From: Rhizodiscina lignyota
Lineage: Eukaryota > Ascomycota > Dothideomycetes > Aulographales > Rhizodiscinaceae
Assembly (NCBI GenBank): GCA_010015805.1
Contig: ML978130.1
Coordinates: 1,054,001 to 1,118,000, forward strand
Direction of reading: 5' to 3'
Length of the DNA stretch: 64,000 bases
The notes beneath the pieces were generated by a model that saw nothing but the letters and a program-made list of their open reading frames with translations, was not told where the DNA came from and did no database searches. Both the position numbers and the translations under genes were made by a program. Below, piece after piece: positions 34,935 through 56,841 of this stretch. Within the stretch, counting starts at the first letter, position 1. The number at the start of each line of letters is the position of its first letter.

Positions 34935-36190
34935 ATTGCCGTCCAATCGTTGGTCGAGCAGATCAATGGACAAGATGCACATTCGAATTAGATTGGCGTT
35001 ACGCTTGCGCTTTATTGCGCCCCGGTATTAATTATCACATATCAAAGAGGATATCAAAACAGAAGGAATGGAATGATTACCTGACTTTGGGAGCGTCCAT
35101 ACACAGTTCATCCTTCACATATCAATTCTGAGCTCTCGAAGATAGGACCGAACCTTGCCTCAGCTGAAGGTCATGGAGAAAGGAGCCTTAGATTTGAACT
35201 GTCCACCCCACACTCATGAATGACATAGTACAATCTGATCCCGGATGGAGCTCAAATGGTGTTCTGCAGATGAGCCTTTTTCTCTTATACCTAAGATTAA
35301 AAATATGGCCATATCAACGTGCTTCAACAGAAGCACAGAAGTTTGTGTCTGCAGCCTGTTTACTAATGTGCTCCGGACGAACTTGAATCTCATAAAGTCT
35401 TAAATTTTGCTTGAGATCGTTCCTATTTGTCTGCGGGAACAGGCATAATACTTCTACTGCGGCAACATCAAGGAACCCAATCGGAAATTATCCGAAAATT
35501 GCCAAGCTCGGGACTTGGCTCTAAGATTAGGTTTAGCGTCCCTGTACTTCACCGTTCCTGACGTCTCCTTAGTCCAAGCCCACTGTTTCTGTGGCTGATC
35601 ATGAACTTGGTATTACATCGCATACACAACCCTTAGATACGATATTGCGATGCGATATCCAGCTTGCCAACCACGCCTACGTCTCTCTGCTAAGTACAAT
35701 AGCTGAATACGAGCCCGTGAAGCAGAAGATCCGAGCATCCAAGCTTCCGATCTGCTAAAAACAGTCACATCATCCTGCCACCCCCCTCCCATCGCAACTT
35801 GGCGCCGGAAGTGGGAAAATGGCAAGAGTCGTGATGTCCTCTTTTCCCCACTCTACTTCACCCAGCAACGTTATTCCTTTATGGGCTCTTACGCCACTTG
35901 CTCATTTCTCGCATGTAGAGACATATTCGGAAGAGTCTTCGCAATCAGCCTGGGAATTCGGTGTCATGCAATGCCTCGAGCAGTATGTCAAGCACTGGAC
36001 TCTTCCGTATAAATGAAGAGTTATCCTGGTAAGCAAGAAGCGTTCTGTACAATATTGTTCAAATTTGAAGTCACATTGATCCTCAAACTGCACTATCTCT
36101 TTCTCGCTTTTCTTTCATCTCCCTTCTATTGCGAACCAGAGCGTGATAAGAGGGAAAGCGAATAGTTAGGTTTCGCCACTTTTGGCGAAG
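34935..36190. other. A+T-rich gene-poor region
   Basis: No supported gene in about 1.25 kb. Composition is more A+T-rich than the flanks, and open frames are short. Together with the zinc-cluster remnant it may be decayed coding DNA. The right end holds the promoter of the arylsulfotransferase-family gene. Confidence 0.45.
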
Positions 36191-37880
36191 ATGAAGCTTA
36201 GAAACAATGCCCTCTCAACACCTGCCATTCTGTCAGTTACCTTAGGGAGCGTCCTCGCCGCGCCGCCCACCGAGAAGGAACTCTGCTCGGCCAATTCGGT
36301 CGAAGTGATCAATAATCATCCAGAGACCTGGCCGTACCAGTCATTCGTGAGTTCCGAACGCAATCCGCCTTGGCTGAGTATCAATCGAACCGGGGAGGCT
36401 CTTGCCCCAGGCTTCATTTTCTTAGCCCAGGATGCTGGGTTCAGTAACTCATCTATCAAAGAGCAATCTCCTCTGATTATGACGAGTGATGGGAACCTTG
36501 TGTGGGCCGGACCAAGAGTATCTGGAACTACAAACTTCCGCACTCAGACTCTCTTTGGCGAACCCGTTCTTACCTTCTGGGAAGGCTCTGGAGCGGCCGC
36601 AAACAGCCAAAATGCAGGCCACGGTTTCGGTAGCGTCAGGATATTCGACAAGTCATACAAGCAAATTTACAACGTCTGCCCTAAGTTGGACATCGTTCTA
36701 CCACCAGGTGCCACGGCGTCTTGCAAAGCCGACATCCACGAGTCCTATATCACAGAGCAGAATACGATCCTGGTGACAGCATACAATATCACAACGACCG
36801 ATCTGACGAGCGTTGGAGGCCCGAAGAAGGGTTACGTCTATGATTCCCTTGCGGTTGAGGTTGATGTCAAAACCGGAGAAGTACTCTGGACTTGGAGTCC
36901 GGTGGCTCACGTTCCGGTGAACGCCTCTCATCTGCCACTAGATGGAGCAGGTCAAAATACCTCGAATCCGTGGGACTGGTTCCATATGAACTCCATTCAG
37001 CCCTTTGAGGGCAATTACTTGATCAATAGCCGTAGTGCCTGGTCCACATATCTGGTCAAACCGTCCGGCGAGATCATCTGGCATATCAATGGTGAAGATG
37101 GTGGTGACTTTGGGAAGCTTCCAGATGGCGGACACTTCGTGAGAATATCTTTACTTTCTCTGATATGCATAAGTATCCTCCCAGCTAATTGGTTTGTAGT
37201 CTTGGCAGCATATGGCTCGCATCGAAAGAGAATCCTCCAACAAGGTCAAGCTGCACTACTTCGCAAACAACAACGACGAACCGGTGACAACTGTCCCATC
37301 GACCGGCGTCGAATTGTGTCTCACACTACCACCTGATCCATCAAACCCACCAGAACTGCTAAAAGATTTGAGCGACCCAAAGAATCCAGTCGTCGTCTAC
37401 GCCGAGGGTTCTTACACACCGCTCGAGAATGGCAACACACTCATGGGATATGGTGTCCAGCCCTTTATCAAAGAGTTCGGACCAAACCCGACCGGCGCAG
37501 ACGTACGCTGGTCTGCGCAATTTGGTTTTGACCCATATGGTGCTGGTAGCTATCGGGCGTACAAGAGCGAGTGGAGCGCAATACCGTCCACAAAGCCTTC
37601 ATTAGTAGCGAAGAAAATCACTGGCTCTGACAAATTGACATCCTGCGCCGGGTCCTCGAAATTGCGCGGTTACGTTAGCTGGAACGGTGCTACGGATGTA
37701 GAGGAATATAAAGTCTACGCAGGAGACAGCAAGACTGATTTGAAGGAGGTTGGAGAAGTGCTGAAGCGAGGATTTGAGACTGTATTTTCTCTTCCAGCGG
37801 GTGTAAAGTTTGTGTCGGTTGGTGCTGTGGTCAAGGGAAATTCAACCGCGACTATGTCAAAGGTAGTGGCGGTTGACTGA
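36191..37880 (+). CDS. Secreted arylsulfotransferase (ASST) family protein
   Basis: Two exons, 36191-37138 and 37200-37880 (61-nt intron, donor GTGAGA), encode 542 aa. The start is the ATG at 36191; the codon three triplets upstream is TTG. Seen: a signal peptide ending near SVTLGSVLAAPP; N-glycosylation sequons; SPLIMTSDGNLVWAGP and LTFWEGSG, hallmarks of the fungal ASST domain; ADIHESYITEQNTILVTAYN; DPWDWFHMNSIQPFEGNYLI-type sequence (here NPWDWFHMNS); SGEIIWHINGEDGGDF; and FSWQHMARI across the intron. A C-terminal fibronectin-like beta domain (LRGYVSWNGATDVEEYKVYA) follows. Bacterial ASST moves sulfate between phenols, but the many fungal paralogs are uncharacterised, so activity is open. 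Confidence 0.9.
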
Positions 37881-45052: not shown

Positions 45053-47106
45053 TCAGCCGAACAGGTACTGCCTCGTGGAGCTGATCCCGGATTTCTGGTC
45101 GATGAGAGAGCCCCACCAGCTGTCCGGGTCTGCCGCTGCCGCCCATACCTCTTCGAGGAGGCCAAGGGTGGTGAGGAACATGTCGTACCGCGTCTTGACG
45201 CCCCACCAGTTACAGTAGTCCCTGGCCTCTTCCCTCAGATACTCGTCGTCCGTCTCGCACGCGGCTAAGAAGACGGGTAGCAGGAGCTGCTTCTGAATCA
45301 TGACGCTCCGCCTGCACGACAACACGTTGTTGAGAGCCTTGCGCGCGAAGAGGCGGATGCGCGCCATAGAAGCCTCGCAGCGGCGCCACTTGAAGACGCG
45401 CTCAATGTAGACGAGCAGTGCAAACCGCCACGCCTGGGCGCAGTGGTAGAGGTCCTGGGCGTAGTGCGCTGCCTGGACAGGATCCAGGGCCCCGTCGTCA
45501 GGGATGCCAGCAGCGCCCGGCTGGGTAAATTCCACGTCCGGATCGTCGTACTGGGGTGCCCGCCACTCCTCGATGGCTTTCTCCACGGCTAGCACGGGGC
45601 CCATGTCGAAGGTGACGCAAGTCATGTGCGAGGCCAGCTCGAACTCGCGTGCGTAGGTTCCGAGCCGGAACATGTACCTGAAGAGCTCCTCAGGGCATCC
45701 CGAGATGTTGTAGAAGGTCGGAGCGTTGTTTGGGTTGAAGACGTTGCTGATCGTAGGGCCAGACAGGACGAACCCTTGACGAGTGGTGAGGCCAAGCGTG
45801 ACATCCCACCTAGATGTCGCATTGGTCAGTTGTGTTGAAAGGATACGGTTGTGTGGGAAGAAGACACACCAAACAAACATGTCGACCTGAGCCTGAATCC
45901 TTGGGCTCCTTTGGATTTTGAATGCCCCGAGAGCTTCGATGATCCTCTGCGCGCGCCTGAGGTGCGCAACCCAGGGACCTTGGGCTGAGGTAGCACACTT
46001 GGGCAGATGGTTAGCTGGAGTGGACTGGGGTAGCGAGTATTTCAACCAGCTCACATCTAAGGTCATCAATATCAACAATCCATTAAGCAAGTTTGTCCCA
46101 GAATGTGCGGATCCAAGGTAGCCGTCTAGTTCCTCGAGGAGCTGCACGGCTTTCCTCTTGTGCACCTTTGCTTCGGCGAGGCAGGAACCAGTCTCGCGAT
46201 GGATGTGCTTATACGACAAGGCCAGAATAGAGTGCCACAGAAGGGGCGAGCCTCTGCCGGTCTCAATATCATAGCGGAAAGGATTTGCTTCAAAGTCGTG
46301 CGTCAAAGGCCAGACGCAAAATTCCCGGTCATCTGCCCGGCAACGTTAGTGGCTTGCGCCTCGCTTTATCTCTCTGAGGTCATCAAGGCACTGGCGGGCT
46401 TACACTGGGCGAAGAGCCTATAAAAATTGTCGCTGATATTTACAGGTATTGAGCTATGATCGTCCAGTTTGGGGTCGATATCTCTCAAAATGCCTCCAGT
46501 TGAGTTGGGCGAGTCTTCCGACGATATATCTTCTATGATCGGATGGCCCTGATCTCCTGGAAGGTGCTCTTGGGACCTGTCTAGTGAATGTTCAGGAGCT
46601 GCCATACTGGTATGGCCTAGAGTAGGCGAAGTAGTCAGGTGGAACGGGGCGCCAAACAAAGGTAAGGGGTCGTTGAAGTCGAGAGCAGGCCCCAAGGCAT
46701 CCGTGGCCATTGTCAGACCGGTCGATGCCGGCCAGTCCAGGAGTGACTCCAGAATGTCAGTGGGAGGGTGTACTACAGTGGTCGGCATAATTTGGGGCTC
46801 ATCGGTGAAAGATGTGGCTATTGGTGTTCTCGTGGTTGTGACGTCCTCATTCTGGAATGCAGCGCTAGGTGCAGCGCAGCCGTCGTTTCCCTCAGGACTG
46901 GAGCTTGCGTGTGATTCGGTGTGCACAGTAGAGACCAGCTGCATCAGCCTCCGCATATCGTTTGTCGCTGCCGCCGCCTTCACCACAGACATGGGCTGCG
47001 GCGACGTCGACTCGGCATGGCGGGTGGTAGACGGCGCACATCGGCGTCGCTTTCTGCTCGGACCACCGACAAACTTGAACGTGCGGGGCAACTTGGGCTG
47101 GGACAT
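45053..47106 (-). CDS. Fungal_trans_2-type regulator without a visible zinc cluster
   Basis: Four exons, 47106-46404, 46332-46055, 45997-45870 and 45809-45053, give 621 aa. Two introns (46054-45998, 57 nt, with GTGAGC donor and GCTAAC branch; 45869-45810, 60 nt) have lengths divisible by three and no stop, so they could be misread as coding. Removing the second creates VWWDVTLGLTTRQGFV, the conserved motif of the family. Other family features: YDREFCVWPLTHDFEANPFR, HSILALSYKH, and WRFALLVYIERVFKW. The N-terminus has a basic SRKRRRC patch but no Zn2Cys6 array, and I found none upstream. It is probably the pathway regulator of the adjoining cluster, perhaps acting through a partner or by a DNA-binding exon I missed. 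Confidence 0.85.
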
Positions 47107-48385
47107 GTTAACGTCAACAAGAAGAATGAGAGGAGAGCACGGTCAGTGAGATACAGTGCAATCGAGCAAGGAACGTACCCCACATAAGAAAAATCCTCCT
47201 ATCGCACCATGGTCTGGGCTTCTACGCCATTCCCGGGTGAGCGGGACGACCGACGAAGCTCCGCACAGGGGTTTGCCAGGTTATGCTAATAGGGGCGTAC
47301 AGCCTTGTTCGCAACTGGGGAACTATATCAGATACAAGCACGCAGAACAATCACGGCGCGTGAAATACTATAAGCTTCACCACGAGCAAAATCAGGATGA
47401 GAACAGTGGTGCCAAGCTTCACGCGGCGTTGACCAGCTTGCAAAGCTCCATCTTGCTTATGACGGTCTAAGTGCTGTTCGCCTCGATCTCACGCGCCACA
47501 TTCTCAGTGCAGTGCCGGGTGTGGTTTGACGATGATGCTGTAGCTGACTCTTCAAGCACTGTCGACTCGTTCGATCTCAGCTGTTGGTTGTACTGCGAGG
47601 ACGGCCACCCTGCAACAGCGGTCGAGTCCCTTTCGTGCTTTCGAATTAATTGTTTGGTTGGTAAGTATCGGAGGAGCAGAGAAAGCGTCTGTATAGTTCG
47701 ACTAGGACGAGCAGAAGAGATAGAGTGGCAGTTGAATAGCAAACGACCTGGATGTGTAGACAAAGTAGATACGTCGTCTCAGTGCCTCGTCGCTCCCTAC
47801 AAAGTCACCTACACTTGGCCACAATATAGACCACCACTTTGCCCCATTCCAGCCTCATTCCAACTCTACATTTCCTGATTTGAGATATTCAATTGTGGGG
47901 TAGAAATTTCTACCCTCCCTGAGTCAGGACAGCACCTCCTGTCTGGCTTATCTTCGGTGGCGGGCACCGCTAGTACAGAAAAGGCGATTGGACTTTGCCG
48001 CTATGCCCAATCAGGAGAAATGGCACATAGAGCGCCGGGGTCAATCCAACCACCTGCTAATCTCATTTTGGAGATATTGACACCCTGCCATCCTCACTTT
48101 ATACACTACAACCGGTGTGTCCTACCCTCCTAGCGTTCGATGTCAGGCGTCTAGGCGTGCACCAGCTGGCATGATGTCAACGCTACCAGAGCGGAGCGCC
48201 GAGCATGCTATTCCTCGCAAAGAACACTACCAAGTAGGGCAGTCTACCAAGCTGCCTTTACCTTGAATTGCTCTATCTAGTGCGTACTTCATCAGTGAGA
48301 TTACTCCGCGAAACATGCCCTCCAGCCAGTATGTCTCGTTGCATTTCGCCCTATCAAATTTGCTGCAACAACGCACACGTCCACG
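47107..48385. other. Divergent region between regulator and D-amino-acid oxidase
   Basis: About 1.3 kb between two divergent starts. Open frames of 98-135 codons near 47470-47880 on both strands are unlike any family and overlap each other, so I do not call them. Probable promoter for both cluster genes. Confidence 0.5.
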
Positions 48386-49682
48386 ATGGCTTCGTTGAGC
48401 TCGAACGACAGTATCGTCATTGTTGGGTAAGTTCATATGTTCGCAGCGGCTGGCAAAACACCTAACGATTGGTCGCTCAGGGCCGGTATCATTGGTCTCA
48501 ATGTTGCGTTGGTCCTCTCGGAGAGAGGCTACGGCCAGTCGATTGCTGTGGTGGCTGAGCATTTTCCAGGCGACACGAGTCTGAATTACACGTCACCATG
48601 GTGAGAAATGTGCAGATCCGAGCCGAGCGCCTTGCACGATCTGTATGCTTACTTGGAGCAGGGCCGGCTGCAACTTCTCGGCAATCTCCGGCACAGATGC
48701 CACTGCATTGCGTTGGGACCGTCTGGGATATGATCATCTTTCGAGGCTTGCGTCGGTGCGCTCTGAGGAAGCATATGTGCATTGGACTCCGTCGATTGAG
48801 CTTTGGGATGAGGATGTTCCTCGTGATAAGATACAACACATGTCAGAATATCTGAGAGATGTAAGGGCCTGCATAATCCTGCGCGGCGCTAGGTGTCGCT
48901 GACATACCACAGTTCCGAATCTTGCCTGAAGCTGAGCTTCCGAAGGGAGTGAAATTCGCTGTCTCCTTTACCACGCTGACCGTGAATGCCCCCGAGCACA
49001 TCAAGTATCTGCATCGAAGACTTCAGGACCAGTACGGTGTGCGGTTTGTGCGCAAAAGGCTCCCCAGCATCCAGTCAGCGTACGCGAGCCCGTCCACCAA
49101 GATTGTCTTCAACTGCACGGGAATTGCCTCTGGCACCCTCCCTGGCGTCGAGGACCCCAAGTGCTACCCTACCCGAGGCCAGGTGGTGTTGGTAAAGGCC
49201 CCTCATATCCAAACCAACATGATGCGTCACGGCGCGGACTACGAAACATACGTGATCCCTCGCCCGGGATCCAATGGGAACGTCATCTTGGGTGGGTACA
49301 TGCAAAAGAGAGTCAGGTAATTCTCTGGCAGTACTGATAATTTCCATAAATCCTCGCTAACGTGATTCTCAGCGACGGTTCTACCTACGCTTTCGAAGTT
49401 GAGTCCATTTTAGCCCGCACGCGTGACCTGAGCCTGGAGATTCGCCAGCAGGAGCCTGAGTTATTGGGCACCTTTGCCGGCCTCCGCCCTTCACGTGAAG
49501 GAGGTGCGCGTGTGGAGAGAGATGAGGTCGTTATAGACGGGCAGAAATGCGCACTGGTTCACAACTATGGTGCGGGTGGCACGGGTTTTCAAGCTGGCTA
49601 TGGCATGGCCCTCGAATCCGTGGCGATAGTCGAAGATGTGCTGCACCAAATTCAGAACAGCATGCCTCGAGCGAACCTCTGA
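48386..49682 (+). CDS. D-amino-acid oxidase
   Basis: Five exons, 48386-48426, 48481-48600, 48662-48860, 48913-49316 and 49373-49682, encode 357 aa. The FAD enzyme oxidises D-amino acids to imino acids, which become 2-oxo acids, with release of hydrogen peroxide. Seen: Rossmann motif GAGIIG at 14-19 (split by intron 1); YTSPWAGCNFSA; YPTRGQVVLV; YETYVIPRPGSNGNVILGG with the substrate-carboxylate Arg; and LVHNYGAGGTGFQAGYGMA, an excellent match to the DAAO signature. The length is right for a fungal DAAO (about 340-365). The C-terminal ANL could act as a weak PTS1-like peroxisomal signal. It is the first plus-strand gene of the cluster. Confidence 0.93.
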
Positions 49683-50188
49683 AAATGCGATTGTTCGTAT
49701 TGCAATTTTAAGCATTCAGTGTATTAGTAAACTGCAACACATTGAAGCGATCAGTTTTAGTCAAGTTGCAGTACTACAGTAAGATGCTCACGGCTCATGC
49801 TATTAGTTCAGACCCGTATATACTCTTAGTACAGAAGCTCAAGCATAGTGCACTGGCCAACCAGCTCCCTTCACAAGACCTAGTACTGCGGCGACTACTG
49901 CCCTAGTGTCATGGTTAGAGTCAATATACGGGGCTCCCGTCATTACTGCGTTCCTCTGCATTGCCAAATTAGGAATTACCGGATTAAGGGAAACTGCAAC
50001 GTGGAAGTTCAATTGCTAGGTAGATAGTCCTTTCCTCTTGAGTATACTTGGCGTGAGATAGGTATGCTTATTAGACGCTGCAGGTCGCTGGCTGAATTGA
50101 CAGGCAACGAACAGACTCTGCTCTAACCACTCGTTGTCCTCAAAGCCATTCCACTCGGCGGCCCATCCGAAGAAGACGGCCAACCAGC
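49683..50188. other. Spacer, promoter of the transaminase
   Basis: 506 bp between two same-strand genes. No frame of interest. A+T-rich in the middle. Confidence 0.55.
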
Positions 50189-51211
50189 ATGGCTACCATG
50201 GACCAAGTCTTCGCTGGTTACCACAGCCGACAGGCTGTTCTGGAGGCCAGTTTCGACAAGAATCTTTTTGCTAGCGGCATTGCCTGGGTCGAGGGGGAGT
50301 TCGTGCCTCTCCACGAAGCTCGCATCCCGCTGCTAGACCAGGGCTTCATGCACAGCGATTTGACCTACGACGTACCATCTGTCTGGGACGGCCGCTTTTT
50401 CCGGCTCGACGATCATATGACTAGACTACAGGCCAGTTGTGAGAAGATGCGGCTGCAACTTCCTCTGCCGCGTGAAGAGGTCGAGAGGATCCTGGTCGAG
50501 ATGGTTGCCAAAAGTGGCATTCGTGACGCCTTCGTCGAGCTAATTGTGACCCGCGGTTTGAAGGGCGTGCGTGGCCATACCCCCGGCGAGGTCTTCAAGA
50601 ACAACCTTTACATGTTCATCGAACCTTACGTGTGGGTGATGGAGCCCGAAATCCAGCCCACTGGGGGCAAGGCCGTTGTGGCGCGGACAGTGCGGCGCAT
50701 CTCTCCAGGGTCTATCGACCCGACCGTGAAGAACCTCCAATGGGGCGATCTCACGCGTGGTCTCTTCGAGGCTGCCGACCGAGGCGCCGTATATCCATTC
50801 CTAACAGACGGTGACGCGAATCTCACCGAGGGGTCGGGGTTCAACATCGTTCTGATTAAGGACGGCGTCCTGTACACACCCGATCGTGGTGTTTTGCAGG
50901 GTGTCACCCGCAAGAGTGTTATCGATGTCGCCAAGTCCTGCGGCTTCGTAGTGCGGATCGAGTACGTGCCGACAGAGATGGCCTACAGCTGCGATGAGAT
51001 TCTCATGTGTACTACCGCCGGCGGGATTATGCCCATCACTGAGCTCGACGGCAGACCTGTAGGGGACGGCAAGGTCGGTCCCATCACAAAGAAGATCTGG
51101 GATGGCTACTGGGCCATGCACTACGATCCAACCTACAGTTTCGAGATTGACTACGCAACCAGTACTGCAAAGAGAGTGAACGGCGCAAAGAGCTTGAACG
51201 GTACACACTAG
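50189..51211 (+). CDS. (R)-selective amine transaminase (class IV PLP fold)
   Basis: Single exon, 340 aa. Closely resembles the Aspergillus-type (R)-selective omega-transaminases such as AtRTA (325 aa): [81 protein letters not shown]. Seen: the PLP lysine at K181 in [10 protein letters not shown]; the E-containing [21 protein letters not shown]; and [11 protein letters not shown], which binds the phosphate. R128 of AtRTA, used to hold the carboxylate of the amino acceptor, is present as R128. These enzymes move an amino group from (R)-chiral amines or D-amino acids to a keto acid; the natural substrates in fungi are largely unknown. A 15-residue basic tail is extra. Confidence 0.94.
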
Positions 51212-51897
51212 AGTGCTGTGGTCGGATGTAGATCGCAGCCATGCAGTTTCAATAATTTTGTCAGGAGGTGATCAGTGTGCCTTAGCGTGTATATAGCCTT
51301 GCACTTCTCCTGGGGAGCTTCCTCCCTCAATCAACTCACATTGATCATTCGTGCTCCGACAGCCTTTCCACATCTGCCATTATTACGGATTGTGTTTAGC
51401 TAAATATTTAGATATAATAAGGAAGGACAAGGGCAAGTAAGGAAGACATGTGGCCTGACGGACTGGATGTAAAGTCATCTTCACTAAGCTACACAACATG
51501 CCAAGTATCGTGAGAAATGCGATCATAAACAGATCAATTCGATTAGCTGTGTGCAGTCCCTTTAGATTGATTGATAACGATACTCCAATCAGCACAATCC
51601 CTTGGCAATCAAACGTTTGGTTGGATTATTGACAGGTCACTGACTATATTCTCCACATGCGCGCTGGGCCCCTCGATAAAAGATCTCAGACTCTTCCATG
51701 GCAGTTTGCCGTCCACACTAAGAAACTTGTAGAAGTGCTCTTAGGACTCGGTGAAAGAGGGGCATCTCTATTATCAACCCAACAGCGTTGCTATTCAATC
51801 ATGGTCTTCGTATGGCGCTATCTTGCCCCTTGGAATGAGTAGATGTGCTACATTCCCGATTGCCAACCCTCTCCAACCAGGTGTTGCATATATGGCC
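51212..51897. other. Convergent spacer, no supported gene
   Basis: Between the transaminase stop and the transporter stop. A+T-rich near 51380-51430. Short frames show no features. Confidence 0.55.
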
Positions 51898-53582
51898 TCA
51901 AGATCTCTTCTCACTCTGAGTCTCCACAATAGGCTGCTCTACTTGGAACGCGCTCCCTTCAATCGCCTCGATACTTTCTCCCATGTTAGTATCCTTGAGC
52001 CAGTATTTAATTATTGGTAGAACGAAGACCGGCCCAGCGGCCACAAACTAAACATTGTCAGTGAGAATATATCACTGTAGCTCAAGGGGTAGCGCTCACC
52101 GCCCATGAGGAGCCAAACATAAACTCTTTGGAATACCCGTTTAGGTTGAGCGAAAAAGCGCAAATTTGACACAGGGCGTTAAGAAGACGAAACATGGACG
52201 CATAGACGGAGAGCTTTGCTAACTGTTAGTAGATGCCGCTTCATGTGGGATTTGTGTGTAAATATGGACGACTTACCTCCTCGGGTCGGTTGCTCAGTGC
52301 TCCAATGAACCAATAAGCGTAGCAGTTGTACGTAGCATCTGTGAAGCCATACAAGACGTACACAGCACACGCTCCTGGATAGCCAGAATCGAATACGTCC
52401 ACACGTTCTTCCTCGCTCAAGCCGAACACGGTCTTCTTCATTGTGAAGTATCCAGCAATCCAAACGGCGTTGATGGCGACGAAGACATAGATGACGGCAA
52501 CGAATGCCCTCTTGCGGCGACCAAAGGGCAGCTTGTCTGTAAAGAGGTTGAGAATCCATGCGGAAGGGATCTGAACTGCGCCGGAGATGAAGGTATTGAG
52601 GGCTCGGCCGCGGACGGTGAAATAGACGCCGTTGAAGTCGTTGCTCTGGTAGATGTTATAGTAGTTAACAGCCCAACACATTGGCCAGAAGAACAAAATC
52701 CACCAGTTTCTCTTGCAGACCTCCCACGATGTGACGAGCTCCTCCAGGAAGGTTTTCTTGTTTACCTCCAGCATAACACGCGAACCGTCCTCTCGTATGA
52801 TCTTCTGCCAAGGATAAAGAACCAATCCTAAGCATGAGCCGATCAGCATAAGGATGAAGAGTCCAATATACGTGCCGTCACCGACACGGCTATTGTTGTT
52901 GGTGCCCGCATTCCAGTTCTGCGCCACGGGGATGGAGGCTCCGATGACCACACCGAACTGGAAGATGGACCAGAAGATGGACACATAGAGCCCCTTTTTG
53001 TTTTCGCTCGCGAACGAAGTAATCGCTGTTCCCTCGGCGCACCAGAGCAATGCGGCAGAGAACCCGCACCAGCAGCCTCCAAAGATGACGAATGGGACGT
53101 TTCCGGTATGGTTGAAGCACCACAAGCTGGCTGCGTAGCCCGCATATCCGATACCGCCGGCACACAAAGTAGCCCGCAGTCCGAAATAGTTGAGACAGGC
53201 AGGAGCAACAAAACAGAAGGCCGAGAACACGCTATAGAGCGCTATGTTGGATATGTCGGACAGCCAGGCGCTTTGCTGGCCGGCACCTCCGATGAACGTA
53301 ATGACATTGAACATGCCCACTGTCATGAAGAGGACGCATCCAAGCATTATAGCCTGCACTCGAGGGTGGCCATACGCCCAAATCTTGAATCCTCTGATGT
53401 GATACGGTTTTGGGAGCTGCAAGCGCTTCATGTTAGCCTCGTATGTTTATGACAAGCTTGAGGAGAACATCTACCTCGTAGGCCTGGGGAATATCCACTG
53501 CAGCTTCATAGCCATTTTCGGCATCGTTCTTGTTGCTAGGATTCTCGATGACTTGTGTCAGGGGATTATCAACTTTCGCCAT
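51898..53582 (-). CDS. UNC93-like major facilitator transporter
   Basis: Four exons, 53582-53475, 53416-52277, 52222-52100 and 52047-51898, encode 506 aa. Seen: a hydrophilic N-terminus (MAKVDNPLTQVIENPSNKND) before the first intron; about 11-12 hydrophobic helices; AIMLGCVLFMTVGMFNVITF (TM1); NYFGLRATLCAGGIGYAGYA; WCAEGTAITSFASENKKGLY, the usual UNC93-like loop; WMWSIFQFG-type segment (here FWSIFQFGVVIG); and a basic loop LPFGRRKRAF. The last two short exons close the C-terminal helix and an acidic tail. The fungal DUF895/UNC93-like members are plasma-membrane transporters of uncertain substrate. It is divergent from the amidohydrolase and probably serves the cluster. Confidence 0.9.
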
Positions 53583-54444
53583 TGTGTCCGATCTTTGAAA
53601 TATCAATGTGTATCTCTGGAGACGACGGAGTTGTGGGGTTTAATAGCGATGTGAAGTTTAATATAACGGCCGGTCGCGCAGTAACCTGCTAGTCGCCTTT
53701 GTGTAGTGTCTCTGATATCTAGACATTTGGCGTTGTTCAGACATGGCAGTCGCTTAATGTGGAGGAGAGACTACAATACGCCATGGATGAAAGAAATCGC
53801 CTGATTAGGCAGTTAAGATACTTAAGTTCATCCCGGTTTCCCGGGCGAGAGGATGATATAGAGATGATTAGATTGCCTAACTTCCTGGAGTAGACGTAGG
53901 AAGTCAAGGCGAGGATAAGGTGTTTGCGGGGGACGCTTTGAGGACAGATAAGGCGATATCTTATTCCAGTTTAGAGGAGTGGGCCGCATAGAACGCTCGA
54001 CTGGAGATGAATCTCTTAGTGGACTAAACTAACCACATGTCGAATTCCCTCTTTCGGAAGGCCCGTCGAGCGCCTTCGACGTTTGGGCTCCAAGAGAAAA
54101 ACGCCATATGCGGTTAGAATCTAGTCCATTACGGTTAGTTAGTAATAGGGTATTTTGTTATCCCCGAGATGCGAACATTTTGCCCTGTTAGGAGCTAGAG
54201 TGCTAATGCCTAAATGATAATAGTGGCACTAACCCCGCAAATTGTCATTACACATGCGAATTACTATTCGTCCTTAGCTTCAACTACATGCCCAACAGAC
54301 CCATTTCCTTCACGCTCCGCAACATGCATCAAATATATTGAAACTTTCCTTCCCTTATCTCGAAAATGTTACCATTTCTTCCCAATAAGTGGTCAGACTT
54401 GGATTGTTGAGCACTTTAGATTACTTGTTTTGCGTACTTCATAG
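53583..54444. promoter_or_regulatory. Divergent region, transporter / dimethylformamidase-like gene
   Basis: 862 bp between the two divergent ATGs. Imperfect inverted copies of a TAGTCCA...GGTTAGT-type sequence lie near 54020-54045 and 54120-54145 and could be regulator sites. No gene seen. Confidence 0.45.
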
Positions 54445-56841
54445 ATGGTGGCAATCGACGCCGAAAAAGGTGGCTATCTACCAGAGATCATTGGGTATGC
54501 CGAACCATGGATAGCGGCCCCTGGTGATTCGGTTGCAATCAAAGTAAGATGCGCATCTTTGTTCCTATGAGCTCCCAGTCTCGGCCGGTAACGCAGAGCC
54601 CGTTCATTCCTGAAAGATAGAAGAGCGATCAATAATATGTCCAGTGGAAATGGCCGCACAGGATATGCTCAGGCTAACACATATGCGTAGATATCATGTA
54701 CGGAGCCGGAGTATAAGTATCGGACCGTTCGCTTGATCCAGGGTATCGATCTCGAGCACTCCCCAGAGAAGGCCGAAGAAGAAGTAAAGGATATTCCTCG
54801 AGGTCAACGGCAAGGCAGATTTCAAACGGCTCAACCGGGATCATATGGATATGTTCCTAATTGGGGGCCACCGATTGCAGCAGAGGGTCTTCAAGTTTCT
54901 TTCTATATGCAACCGTGGTTGGTGGACTGCTCGCACGTACAAACTCTCGTTTCCACCCTGGATTCGACCGCACATACTGGATTCTCCATTGCCTTGAACC
55001 ATCAAGGTTCGCTTGATATCAGCGTGGGAACTGGGCACAAGATTGAAGTTATCAGCACTGGGCTTAAACACCAGGAGAAGACCTGGTCAAAAGTCAAGCT
55101 CGTATTCAACGGTCGGTCGGTCCGGTTGAGCTTGACGCACATACCTTTCAGAGTCGAGCCCGTACCTCCTCCTGCGGCATCCGAATGGCAGTTGAATGGT
55201 GAAGCGCTATTGTTCAGGCTTGGACCTCTTCTCGTTGCAGCAAGCCAGAGCCATGCTGCCGACAACAGTCGAGGTGGCCTGAGATCGCATGTGACAGATT
55301 TCTTCAACGGTCGCATTGACCGCCTAACGTTAAAGTCATGCGGCCAAAAACCCTTGACCCTCGCCAAATATGACTTCTCACTGGACATGTCGAGTGACCG
55401 GATCGTCGACACCTCTGGACGCGGTTACGATGGTGTTCTGATTAACGCGCCGACTCGTGCTGTTAAGGGTCATGATTGGGACGGTTCAGAGTGTGACTGG
55501 ACACGGGCGAAGTCTGGCTACGGCGCCATACATTTTCACGACGATGACCTGGATGATGCGGAATGGGACACAGACTTCGTCATCACAATTCCGTCCAGTG
55601 CCCGCTCTGGCGCCTATGCCGTCGAGGTAGAGGCAGTCAACGGCCGAGATAGGGATTCGATCACCTTCTTCGTGCGGCCGACGCACTGGTCATCAGACAA
55701 CTCCAAAAAAGTATGTCTCGTCTTTTCGACATTCACGTATCTGGCGTATGCCAATGAGCGCATGTACGACACATCTCGCCGGAACGACGCCGATCTCGGG
55801 CCGGGATTTGACATCAACAAGGCCCTGAAGAGCGCTGAGTTTTACAAGATGCGCCGGCGCGGTGACCTGGGCTTATCTTGTTATGATCGCCACAACGATG
55901 GCTCTGGCGTTTGCTTCTCTTCGTCAAAGCGGCCGATCCTTAATGTCCGTCCCGGCTACGTGATGTGGGCATTCTCTCGTCCGCGCGAGTTCTCCGCTGA
56001 TCTCATGATGCTTGGGTTCCTGGAGCGCGAGGGCATCCCGTATGAGATCCTGACCGATCATGACTTGCACGTCCGAGGGGCCGGCGCCCTTCAATGCTTC
56101 AATACCGTCATCACAGGCTGCCATCCCGAATACCCTACTCTAGAGTCGTACAGTGCCTATAGCGCCTTTGCCAGAGGTGGGGGGAGCCTCATGTATCTGG
56201 GCGGAAACGGCTTTTACTGGGTAAGTGCCCTCAATGCTGCCCGTCCGCATCGTTTAGAGGTGCGTCGAGGCGACACCGGAGTCCGGCCTTACGGTCTTCC
56301 GGGTGGTGAGCACGTCAACGGCCTCGACGGACAGCGAGGCGGTCTGTGGAGGTCCCGCGGCATGAGTTGCAACACGTTGTTCGGAGTTGGCTTCTGCGCC
56401 CAAGGAACCGGCCCGGGCGTACCTTATAGGCGGACTGAAGTGTCCAGGGACCCCAAACTGTCCTGGATGTTCACGGGCGTAGATGGGGATCTTATCGGGG
56501 AGCATGGCTTTGGGGGCGGCGCGTCGGGCGATGAGATAGATCGCTATGACATGGAGAACGGGAGCCCCGAGGGTGCGTTGACGCTCGCCACGAGCACCGG
56601 CCATAGCGACGACTTCGGCATCGCCATCGAGGACCTGAGCTATCCCGCGCTGAACACGCTCGGGACCCAAACGAATCTGATTCGTAGTGATGTGGTTTAT
56701 TATGTTGGCGCGGGTGGTGGTGCGGTGTTCAGCGTTGGCAGTATTAATTGGTACTGCTCGTTGGCCTGGGACGGCTACAATAACAACGTTGCAAGGTTAA
56801 CAGGCAATGTTATCAAAGGCTTCTTAGCGGGGAAGCGATAA
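54445..56841 (+). CDS. N,N-dimethylformamidase large-subunit-like hydrolase
   Basis: Two exons, 54445-54543 and 54691-56841 (147-nt intron), give 749 aa, close to bacterial DmfA2 (about 760 aa). Seen: an N-terminal IIGYAEPWIAAPGDSVAIKI with SCTEPEYKYRTVRLIQG; a lectin-like beta region (SFYMQPWLV...TGFSIALNHQGSLDISVG); VPSSARSGAYAVEVE-type sequence (here IPSSARSGAYAVEV); FSTFTYLAYANERM; LGFLEREGIPYEILTDHDLH; TGCHPEYPTLESY; GGGSLMYLGGNGFYW; and GAVFSVGSINWYCSLAW at the end. In the bacterial enzyme a mononuclear iron is held by two Tyr and a Glu; Tyr383/386 and Glu513 of HPEY are my candidates. It presumably cleaves an N-substituted amide or formamide. No small DmfA1-type subunit lies nearby. 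Confidence 0.88.

What the first reader, a model, noticed from the sequence alone, without database searches (positions are those of the whole stretch)
45053..56841. Five-gene amine/D-amino-acid cluster with (R)-amine transaminase, DAAO and dimethylformamidase-like hydrolase
Seen: a Fungal_trans_2 regulator, D-amino-acid oxidase, (R)-selective transaminase, UNC93-like transporter and DmfA2-like amidohydrolase side by side. Established: the transaminase accepts (R)-amines or D-amino acids, DAAO acts on D-amino acids, DmfA2 cleaves substituted formamides. Inference: together they could import an N-formyl or N-alkyl amide of a D-configured or chiral amine, release the amine, and deaminate it. I know of no described fungal cluster with this set, and the natural role of fungal (R)-transaminases is unsettled, so this is the best candidate for an undescribed system.
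Basis: partly seen in the sequence, partly recalled or inferred. Interest (0 to 1): 0.86.

Follow-up and report, generated by a model that had tools for sequence, protein, structure and literature searches.

The report
Conserved fungal (R)-amine breakdown gene cluster
Several moulds keep together the genes for an amide-splitting enzyme and an (R)-selective amine transaminase, sometimes with a D-amino-acid oxidase, which probably lets them strip nitrogen from one mirror-image form of certain amides and offers a testable natural job for an enzyme family prized in biocatalysis.

Summary
All five genes are present and intact by hand-built models. The organism is Rhizodiscina lignyota. DAAO is linked in fewer genomes; one linked DAAO is from another branch.

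The hydrolase has the full iron site of PF20254 enzymes. By score its best solved match is N-acetyl-(R)-beta-phenylalanine acylase, narrowly ahead of dimethylformamidase, though TM-score slightly favours the latter. The transaminase carries the (R)-amine:pyruvate signature, so its amino product should be D-alanine.

Model: an N-acyl (R)-amine or (R)-beta-amino acid is deacylated; the transaminase passes the amine to pyruvate, giving D-alanine; DAAO returns pyruvate and NH3. Substrate, DAAO specificity, transporter conservation and co-expression are not shown. Each enzyme family is known; ten searches of one open-access library listed no paper on the combination.

The parts
45053..47106 (-). 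Fungal_trans_2 regulator, 660 aa, exons 47106-46404 and 46332-45053; no Zn2Cys6 cluster seen in the model
   Evidence: Pfam PF11951, splice model
48386..49682 (+). D-amino-acid oxidase family (DAO), 357 aa, exons 48386-48426, 48481-48600, 48662-48860, 48913-49316, 49373-49682; ends RANL (PTS1-like, recalled)
   Evidence: splice model, PF01266, PDB matches to DAAO/DASPO, motif positions
50189..51211 (+). fold-IV (R)-amine:pyruvate transaminase, 340 aa, single exon
   Evidence: PF01063, PDB matches up to 637 bits, signature residues
51898..53582 (-). UNC-93-like MFS transporter, 510 aa, exons 53582-53475, 53437-52277, 52213-52100, 52047-51898
   Evidence: PF05978, splice model
54445..56841 (+). 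DMFA2_C amide hydrolase (iron-type acylase/formamidase family), 749 aa, exons 54445-54543 and 54691-56841; Fe ligands Y386, Y431, E513 plus H511, N539
   Evidence: PF20254, splice model, site check, fold match
53583..54444 (.). 862-bp divergent promoter region between transporter and hydrolase
   Evidence: gene models; no 8- to 12-mer shared by all three promoter regions
47107..48385 (.). 1279-bp divergent promoter region between regulator and DAAO
   Evidence: gene models

Best explanation
A catabolic cluster for an N-acylated (R)-amine or (R)-beta-amino acid. The UNC93-like transporter moves the substrate (inferred). The DMFA2-type iron hydrolase cleaves the amide and frees the (R)-amine (family chemistry established; substrate inferred). 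The (R)-amine:pyruvate transaminase turns the amine into a ketone and pyruvate into D-alanine (established for homologues). DAAO oxidises D-alanine back to pyruvate, releasing NH3 and H2O2, so pyruvate is only a carrier (inferred; possibly in peroxisomes). The regulator switches the set on (inferred).
For: Linkage: 16 of 120 DMFA2-like rows (window included) share a contig length with one of 120 transaminase rows; the eight other species with ordered tags have tag distances of 1, 2, 2, 3, 3, 3, 1 and 5, about 10^-27 if positions were independent with 10,000 genes each (the eight were picked because they share a contig, and shared ancestry is ignored). Branches: all 16 linked hydrolases lie in one 75-row clade and none in the 45-row paralogue clade; none of 58 transaminases in the branch with the A. 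terreus rows is linked to a listed hydrolase. Distances of the 16 pairs correlate (r 0.76, 0 of 5000 permutations). Hydrolase: Fe ligands and His/Asn present in 44 of 44 rows aligned; by score the nearest solved enzyme is (R)-beta-phenylalanine acylase. Transaminase: the signature and pocket residues are present; PMC4255305 states that this class makes D-alanine from pyruvate, and the T. stellatus enzyme takes pyruvate and D-Ala but not alpha-ketoglutarate. DAAO: gene intact and motifs present; in Neocucurbitaria sp. VM-36 the tags run TA 102210, hydrolase 102230, DAAO 102250, with a DAAO from a different branch than the window's.
Against: The acylase lead over DMFase is small (356 v 336 bits; 40 v 36% identity), TM-score is slightly higher for DMFase (0.64 v 0.60), the acylase's N-terminal domain aligns only weakly, and the fungal branch joins the acylase only by two long branches with unstarred support 84. 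DAAO linkage is seen in few genomes, and the Gnomoniopsis DAAO model lacks a conserved stretch. DAAO specificity is open: an Arg aligns with or lies next to human D-aspartate oxidase R216 (numbering recalled), and a D-Asp-specific enzyme would not recycle D-alanine. Most hydrolase orthologues (59 of 75), including a whole 19-row clade, have no listed linked transaminase. The lists are ranked by likeness to the window's own proteins, so linked rows are expected to fall near the window in the trees. No shared promoter motif. None of 80 prokaryotic DMFA2 loci has a detectable transaminase, DAAO or UNC93 homologue.
Confidence: 0.45

Rival explanations
1. One reading: the hydrolase is a true N-substituted formamidase, and the cluster degrades N-formyl or N-alkyl formamides, for instance formamides made from isocyanides; the amine then goes to the transaminase.
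For: Same Fe site as dimethylformamidase; DMFase aligns end to end in one stretch while the acylase's N-terminal domain aligns only weakly; TM-score slightly higher for DMFase.
Against: Best bit score, identity and Foldseek E-value go to the (R)-beta-phenylalanine acylase; DMFase groups with a bacterial protein (support 96), not with the fungal branch; dimethylamine itself has no chiral carbon for the transaminase to act on.
Confidence: 0.2
2. A D-amino-acid cluster: the hydrolase frees D-amino acids from N-acyl-D-amino acids (plants are recalled to make N-malonyl-D-amino acids), and transaminase and DAAO are parallel routes of deamination.
For: DAAO in the same cluster; the A. terreus transaminase uses some D-amino acids such as D-Ala, D-Ser, D-Thr.
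Against: The transaminase has the amine signature, which the Nectria paper ties to negligible D-amino-acid transaminase activity; alpha-ketoglutarate is not accepted by a homologue; among listed hits the transaminase shares a contig with 16 hydrolase rows, DAAO with 3.
Confidence: 0.15
3. The genes are linked but serve a biosynthetic or detoxification route, with the transaminase making an (R)-amine or the hydrolase disarming a toxic plant or microbial amide.
For: Presence in scattered members of three classes, as for specialised metabolism; transaminations are reversible.
Against: No synthase, ligase or P450 among the five genes; a hydrolase plus an oxidase points to breakdown.
Confidence: 0.15
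4. Chance neighbours without a joint function.
For: No shared promoter motif; transporter and regulator conservation untested.
Against: Repeated adjacency of hydrolase and transaminase in distant fungi.
Confidence: 0.05

Closest known systems
N-acetyl-(R)-beta-phenylalanine acylase (PDB 8huy, 8i59, 8i5a)
   Same: Same fold over the whole chain and same Fe-site residues; best solved match by score; releases an (R)-configured amino compound, by its deposited name
   Different: Bacterial (recalled); 32% identity over the whole chain, 40% over 238 columns; its paper was not found in the library, so any link with a transaminase is unknown to me
N,N-dimethylformamidase large subunit (PF20254; PDB 6lvb; PMC7686228)
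   Same: 2-Tyr-1-Glu iron site with His and Asn conserved; aligns end to end; slightly higher TM-score
   Different: 28-36% identity; DMFase has a small subunit that I did not look for here; substrate differs or is unknown
Fungal (R)-selective amine:pyruvate transaminases (A. terreus 4ce5; Nectria and Thermomyces enzymes, recalled as 4cmd and 6xwb)
   Same: Signature and pocket residues shared (the T. stellatus row has Arg for His at position 55); 75-82% identity to the five unlinked fungal rows aligned
   Different: The linked enzymes sit on other branches than the A. terreus rows, whose 58-row branch holds none linked to a listed hydrolase
Eukaryotic D-amino-acid / D-aspartate oxidases (PDB 7ct4, 1c0i, 6rkf)
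   Same: FAD motif and conserved Tyr and Arg motifs
   Different: Substrate class undecided; part of a cluster

Membership tests
(R)-selective amine:pyruvate transaminase | Signature residues equivalent to Nectria His53, Tyr58, Val60, Ser62, Phe113, Glu115 and loop Val125-Arg126-Gly127-Ala128 | tested here: met
   H55, Y60, V62, S64, F115, E117, V127-R128-G129; the fourth loop position is His here, and varies too in the A. terreus (Thr, Ser) and T. stellatus (Ser) rows
(R)-selective amine:pyruvate transaminase | Catalytic Lys and pocket residues of the A. terreus structure (Lys180, Leu182, Trp184, Thr274, Thr275, Ala276) | tested here: met
   K181, L183, W185, T275, T276, A277
(R)-selective amine:pyruvate transaminase | (R)-amine to pyruvate activity | not testable with these tools
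   needs purified enzyme
DMFA2_C iron amide hydrolase (PF20254) | Fe ligands Tyr399, Tyr440, Glu521 plus His519, Asn547 of parDMFase | tested here: met
   Y386, Y431, E513, H511, N539; the same in 44 of 44 rows aligned
N,N-dimethylformamidase proper | DMF hydrolysis and alpha2beta2 complex with a small subunit | not tested
   no search for the small subunit was made; activity not testable
N-acetyl-(R)-beta-phenylalanine acylase | Closest relative, distinct from DMFase | tested here: inconclusive
   slight lead in score, identity and Foldseek E-value, slight deficit in TM-score; tree placement by long branches
D-amino-acid oxidase (DAO/DAAO) | GxGxxG, Tyr of the YxIPR segment, Arg of GLRP, HNYGxGGxG[FY]Q (roles recalled) | tested here: met
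   positions 14-19, 233, 293, 318-328 of the 357-aa model
D-aspartate oxidase | Arg for acidic side chains (human R216, recalled) | tested here: inconclusive
   R225 is aligned to it by HMMER, but lies one residue off in an ungapped reading
Zn2Cys6 regulator | N-terminal Zn2Cys6 cluster | tested here: not met
   only Fungal_trans_2 found; no cluster by eye in the 660-aa model; a missed upstream exon is possible

The most novel reading that the evidence does not exclude
This cluster shows a natural role for one branch of fungal (R)-amine transaminases: an amine-salvage cycle in which an iron acylase supplies (R)-amines, the transaminase loads the nitrogen onto pyruvate as D-alanine, and DAAO unloads it as ammonia, so that D-alanine is a nitrogen shuttle. 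DAAO joining the set from two separate branches would then be convergent evidence for the cycle.
Probability: 0.35. Interest if true: 0.75.

Novelty: new variant of a known kind. Interest (0 to 1): 0.6.

Why it matters
In two structure papers that I searched for it, 'natural substrate' and 'physiological' or 'physiological role' occur 0 times (PMC7387707; PMC4255305). A conserved partner hydrolase gives concrete substrates to test and separates this branch from the A. terreus type studied for biocatalysis. The hydrolase orthologues are also candidates for new (R)-selective acylases or amidases.

Tried and rejected
Prokaryotic parallels: 80 bacterial or archaeal loci around DMFA2 relatives (the best 80 of 290 found) hold no transaminase, DAAO or UNC93 homologue (tblastn E <= 1e-3; the hydrolase itself was found in 80 of 80). 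Flanks were at most 10 kb and often shorter. In a Pfam survey of 109 of the 129 neighbouring ORFs of 200 aa or more extracted from 24 of the 80 loci, no family matched more than 4 of 109; only 25 of 78 families were displayed.

Shared promoter motif: no 8- to 12-mer and no spaced dyad common to the three promoter regions. The test is weak with three short regions.

Peroxisomal transaminase: 2 of 16 linked transaminases end in a PTS1-like tail by my pattern, so I did not build on it.

DAAO as pseudogene: considered because its reading frame is interrupted in the raw ORF list; rejected after splicing.

The AlphaFold model of the hydrolase, from 24 sequences, is moderate (mean pLDDT 70.5; under 50 at 384-406, 427-443 and 548-607, which includes two of the Fe ligands). 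It supports the fold but not pocket details.

Literature: ten searches of the open-access library, six of them aimed at the cluster or the transaminase's role, listed no paper on this cluster; one search found none and the others were judged from titles and abstract starts. Searches for the acylase paper found nothing. Subscription papers are not covered.
Full report
What is there. Hand splicing gives five intact proteins. The DAAO looks broken in the ORF list, but removing four GT-AG introns gives a 357-aa protein that aligns end to end with an 81% identical protein of Diatrype stigma. The window is from Rhizodiscina lignyota, a dothideomycete. The hydrolase is the only PF20254 hit in the assembly. 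The genome has a second (R)-transaminase, 69% identical, on another contig.

Is the grouping conserved? No fungal genome collection was at hand, so I used the protein database. Each listed hit shows the length of its longest contig and, for many deposited genomes, a locus tag. Only the best 120 hits per query are shown and the proteins are clustered at 90% identity, so counts are lower bounds and absences mean little. Of 120 hydrolase rows, 16 (the window included) match one of 120 transaminase rows, two of which have no contig. Eight have ordered tags (hydrolase/transaminase): Talaromyces atroroseus UA08_01695/01694; Neocucurbitaria sp. VM-36 102230/102210 (the tags shown from there all end in 0, so I read this as two genes); Hypoxylon texense 008854/008856; Rhinocladiella mackenziei 03566/03563; Fonsecaea nubica 00865/00862; F. 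pedrosoi 04587/04584; Capronia coronata 07642/07641; Gnomoniopsis sp. 004133/004128. Five unnamed contigs of 46-123 kb also hold both. The remaining two are Hypoxylon cercidicola (567 kb) and an unnamed 1.26-Mb contig, where the distance is unknown. Taxonomy look-ups of six of the names place them in Dothideomycetes, Eurotiomycetes and Sordariomycetes.

DAAO. Listed DAAO hits share a contig with a listed hydrolase or transaminase in Neocucurbitaria VM-36 (both; tag 102250, two genes beyond the hydrolase by the same reading; a second DAAO at 101980), Gnomoniopsis (both; 164-kb contig), Diaporthe amygdali (transaminase; another 164-kb contig), N. cava (transaminase; 3 Mb), Trichoderma sp. SZMC 28015 (hydrolase; 4.1 Mb) and Colletotrichum truncatum (transaminase; 6.8 Mb). 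The last three contigs are too long to show proximity. In the DAAO tree (the window plus 118 of 120 hits; two were dropped for length) the window, Diaporthe, Gnomoniopsis, N. cava and Trichoderma fall in one 9-row clade (support 99), while the VM-36 gene lies in another branch. C. truncatum was not labelled as linked there. So DAAO may have been added more than once; this rests on one genome. The label is not strongly clustered on the tree (5 changes; 38 of 500 shuffles as low).

Trees (FastTree, local support). Linked transaminases sit in a 36-row branch (10 of 36; support 99) and in a 15-row branch with Fonsecaea, Capronia, Rhinocladiella and Exophiala (6 of 15; support 93); 0 of 58 in the branch with the A. 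terreus rows (support 92) are linked to a listed hydrolase. Linked hydrolases all lie in a 75-row clade (16 of 75; support 100) and 0 of 45 in the paralogue clade. Because the lists are ranked by likeness to the window's proteins and cut at 120, part of this pattern is expected. The pairwise distances of the 16 pairs correlate at r 0.76, reached in 0 of 5000 permutations; shared species history alone could give this. T. atroroseus groups away from the other Talaromyces transaminases, with moderate support, so transfer of the set between lineages is possible but untested.

What the enzymes should do. Hydrolase: the iron ligands and helpers of dimethylformamidase, read from passages of PMC7686228, are present, and invariant in 24 of 24 fungal rows and 44 of 44 mixed rows (the window, two solved enzymes, 8 other fungal and 33 prokaryotic proteins). 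Since they are shared across the family, they show amide hydrolysis chemistry but not the substrate. By score, identity and Foldseek E-value the acylase for N-acetyl-(R)-beta-phenylalanine ranks first with DMFase just behind; by TM-score DMFase is slightly ahead (0.64 v 0.60). Transaminase: read against section 12 of PMC4255305 and passages of PMC3907554, the signature and pocket residues are present, except a fourth loop position that also varies in known enzymes. Passages of PMC7387707 show a homologue using pyruvate but not alpha-ketoglutarate, and D- but not L-alanine. DAAO: FAD and conserved motifs intact. It ends RANL, a PTS1-like tail (recalled); 69 of 120 listed relatives end SRL, ARL, AKL or SKL.

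Mechanism. Putting these together: amide to (R)-amine; (R)-amine plus pyruvate to ketone plus D-alanine; D-alanine plus O2 to pyruvate plus NH3. The three steps fit stereochemically only if the hydrolase releases an (R)-amine, which is inferred from its nearest solved relative.

Limits. Substrate, localisation, regulation and transporter role are inference. DAAO could be D-aspartate-type, which would break the shuttle. Ten searches of one open-access library listed no description of this cluster (see Tried and rejected).

Noticed in passing
window 48386-49682: The listed proteins hold no self-match for this intact DAAO (best 81%), so its deposited annotation is probably missing or mis-spliced; the deposited transaminase model also ends differently (329 v 340 aa).
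   Followed up: partly
G000:C1:1365549-1366223 (L001; L103:912-1985): A second (R)-transaminase (69% identical) outside the cluster, ending in AKL (PTS1-like, recalled).
   Followed up: partly
L102:6349-7191: Aspartate dehydrogenase-like gene (PF01958) near that second transaminase, with one other ORF listed between them.
   Followed up: no
window 36170-37880: Arylsulfotransferase-like gene (PF14269) upstream of the cluster.
   Followed up: no
45-row clade (e.g. P0072-P0075): A second fungal DMFA2-like clade, with many rows named Exophiala, Capronia, Fonsecaea or Cladophialophora, none linked to a listed transaminase: function unknown.
   Followed up: partly
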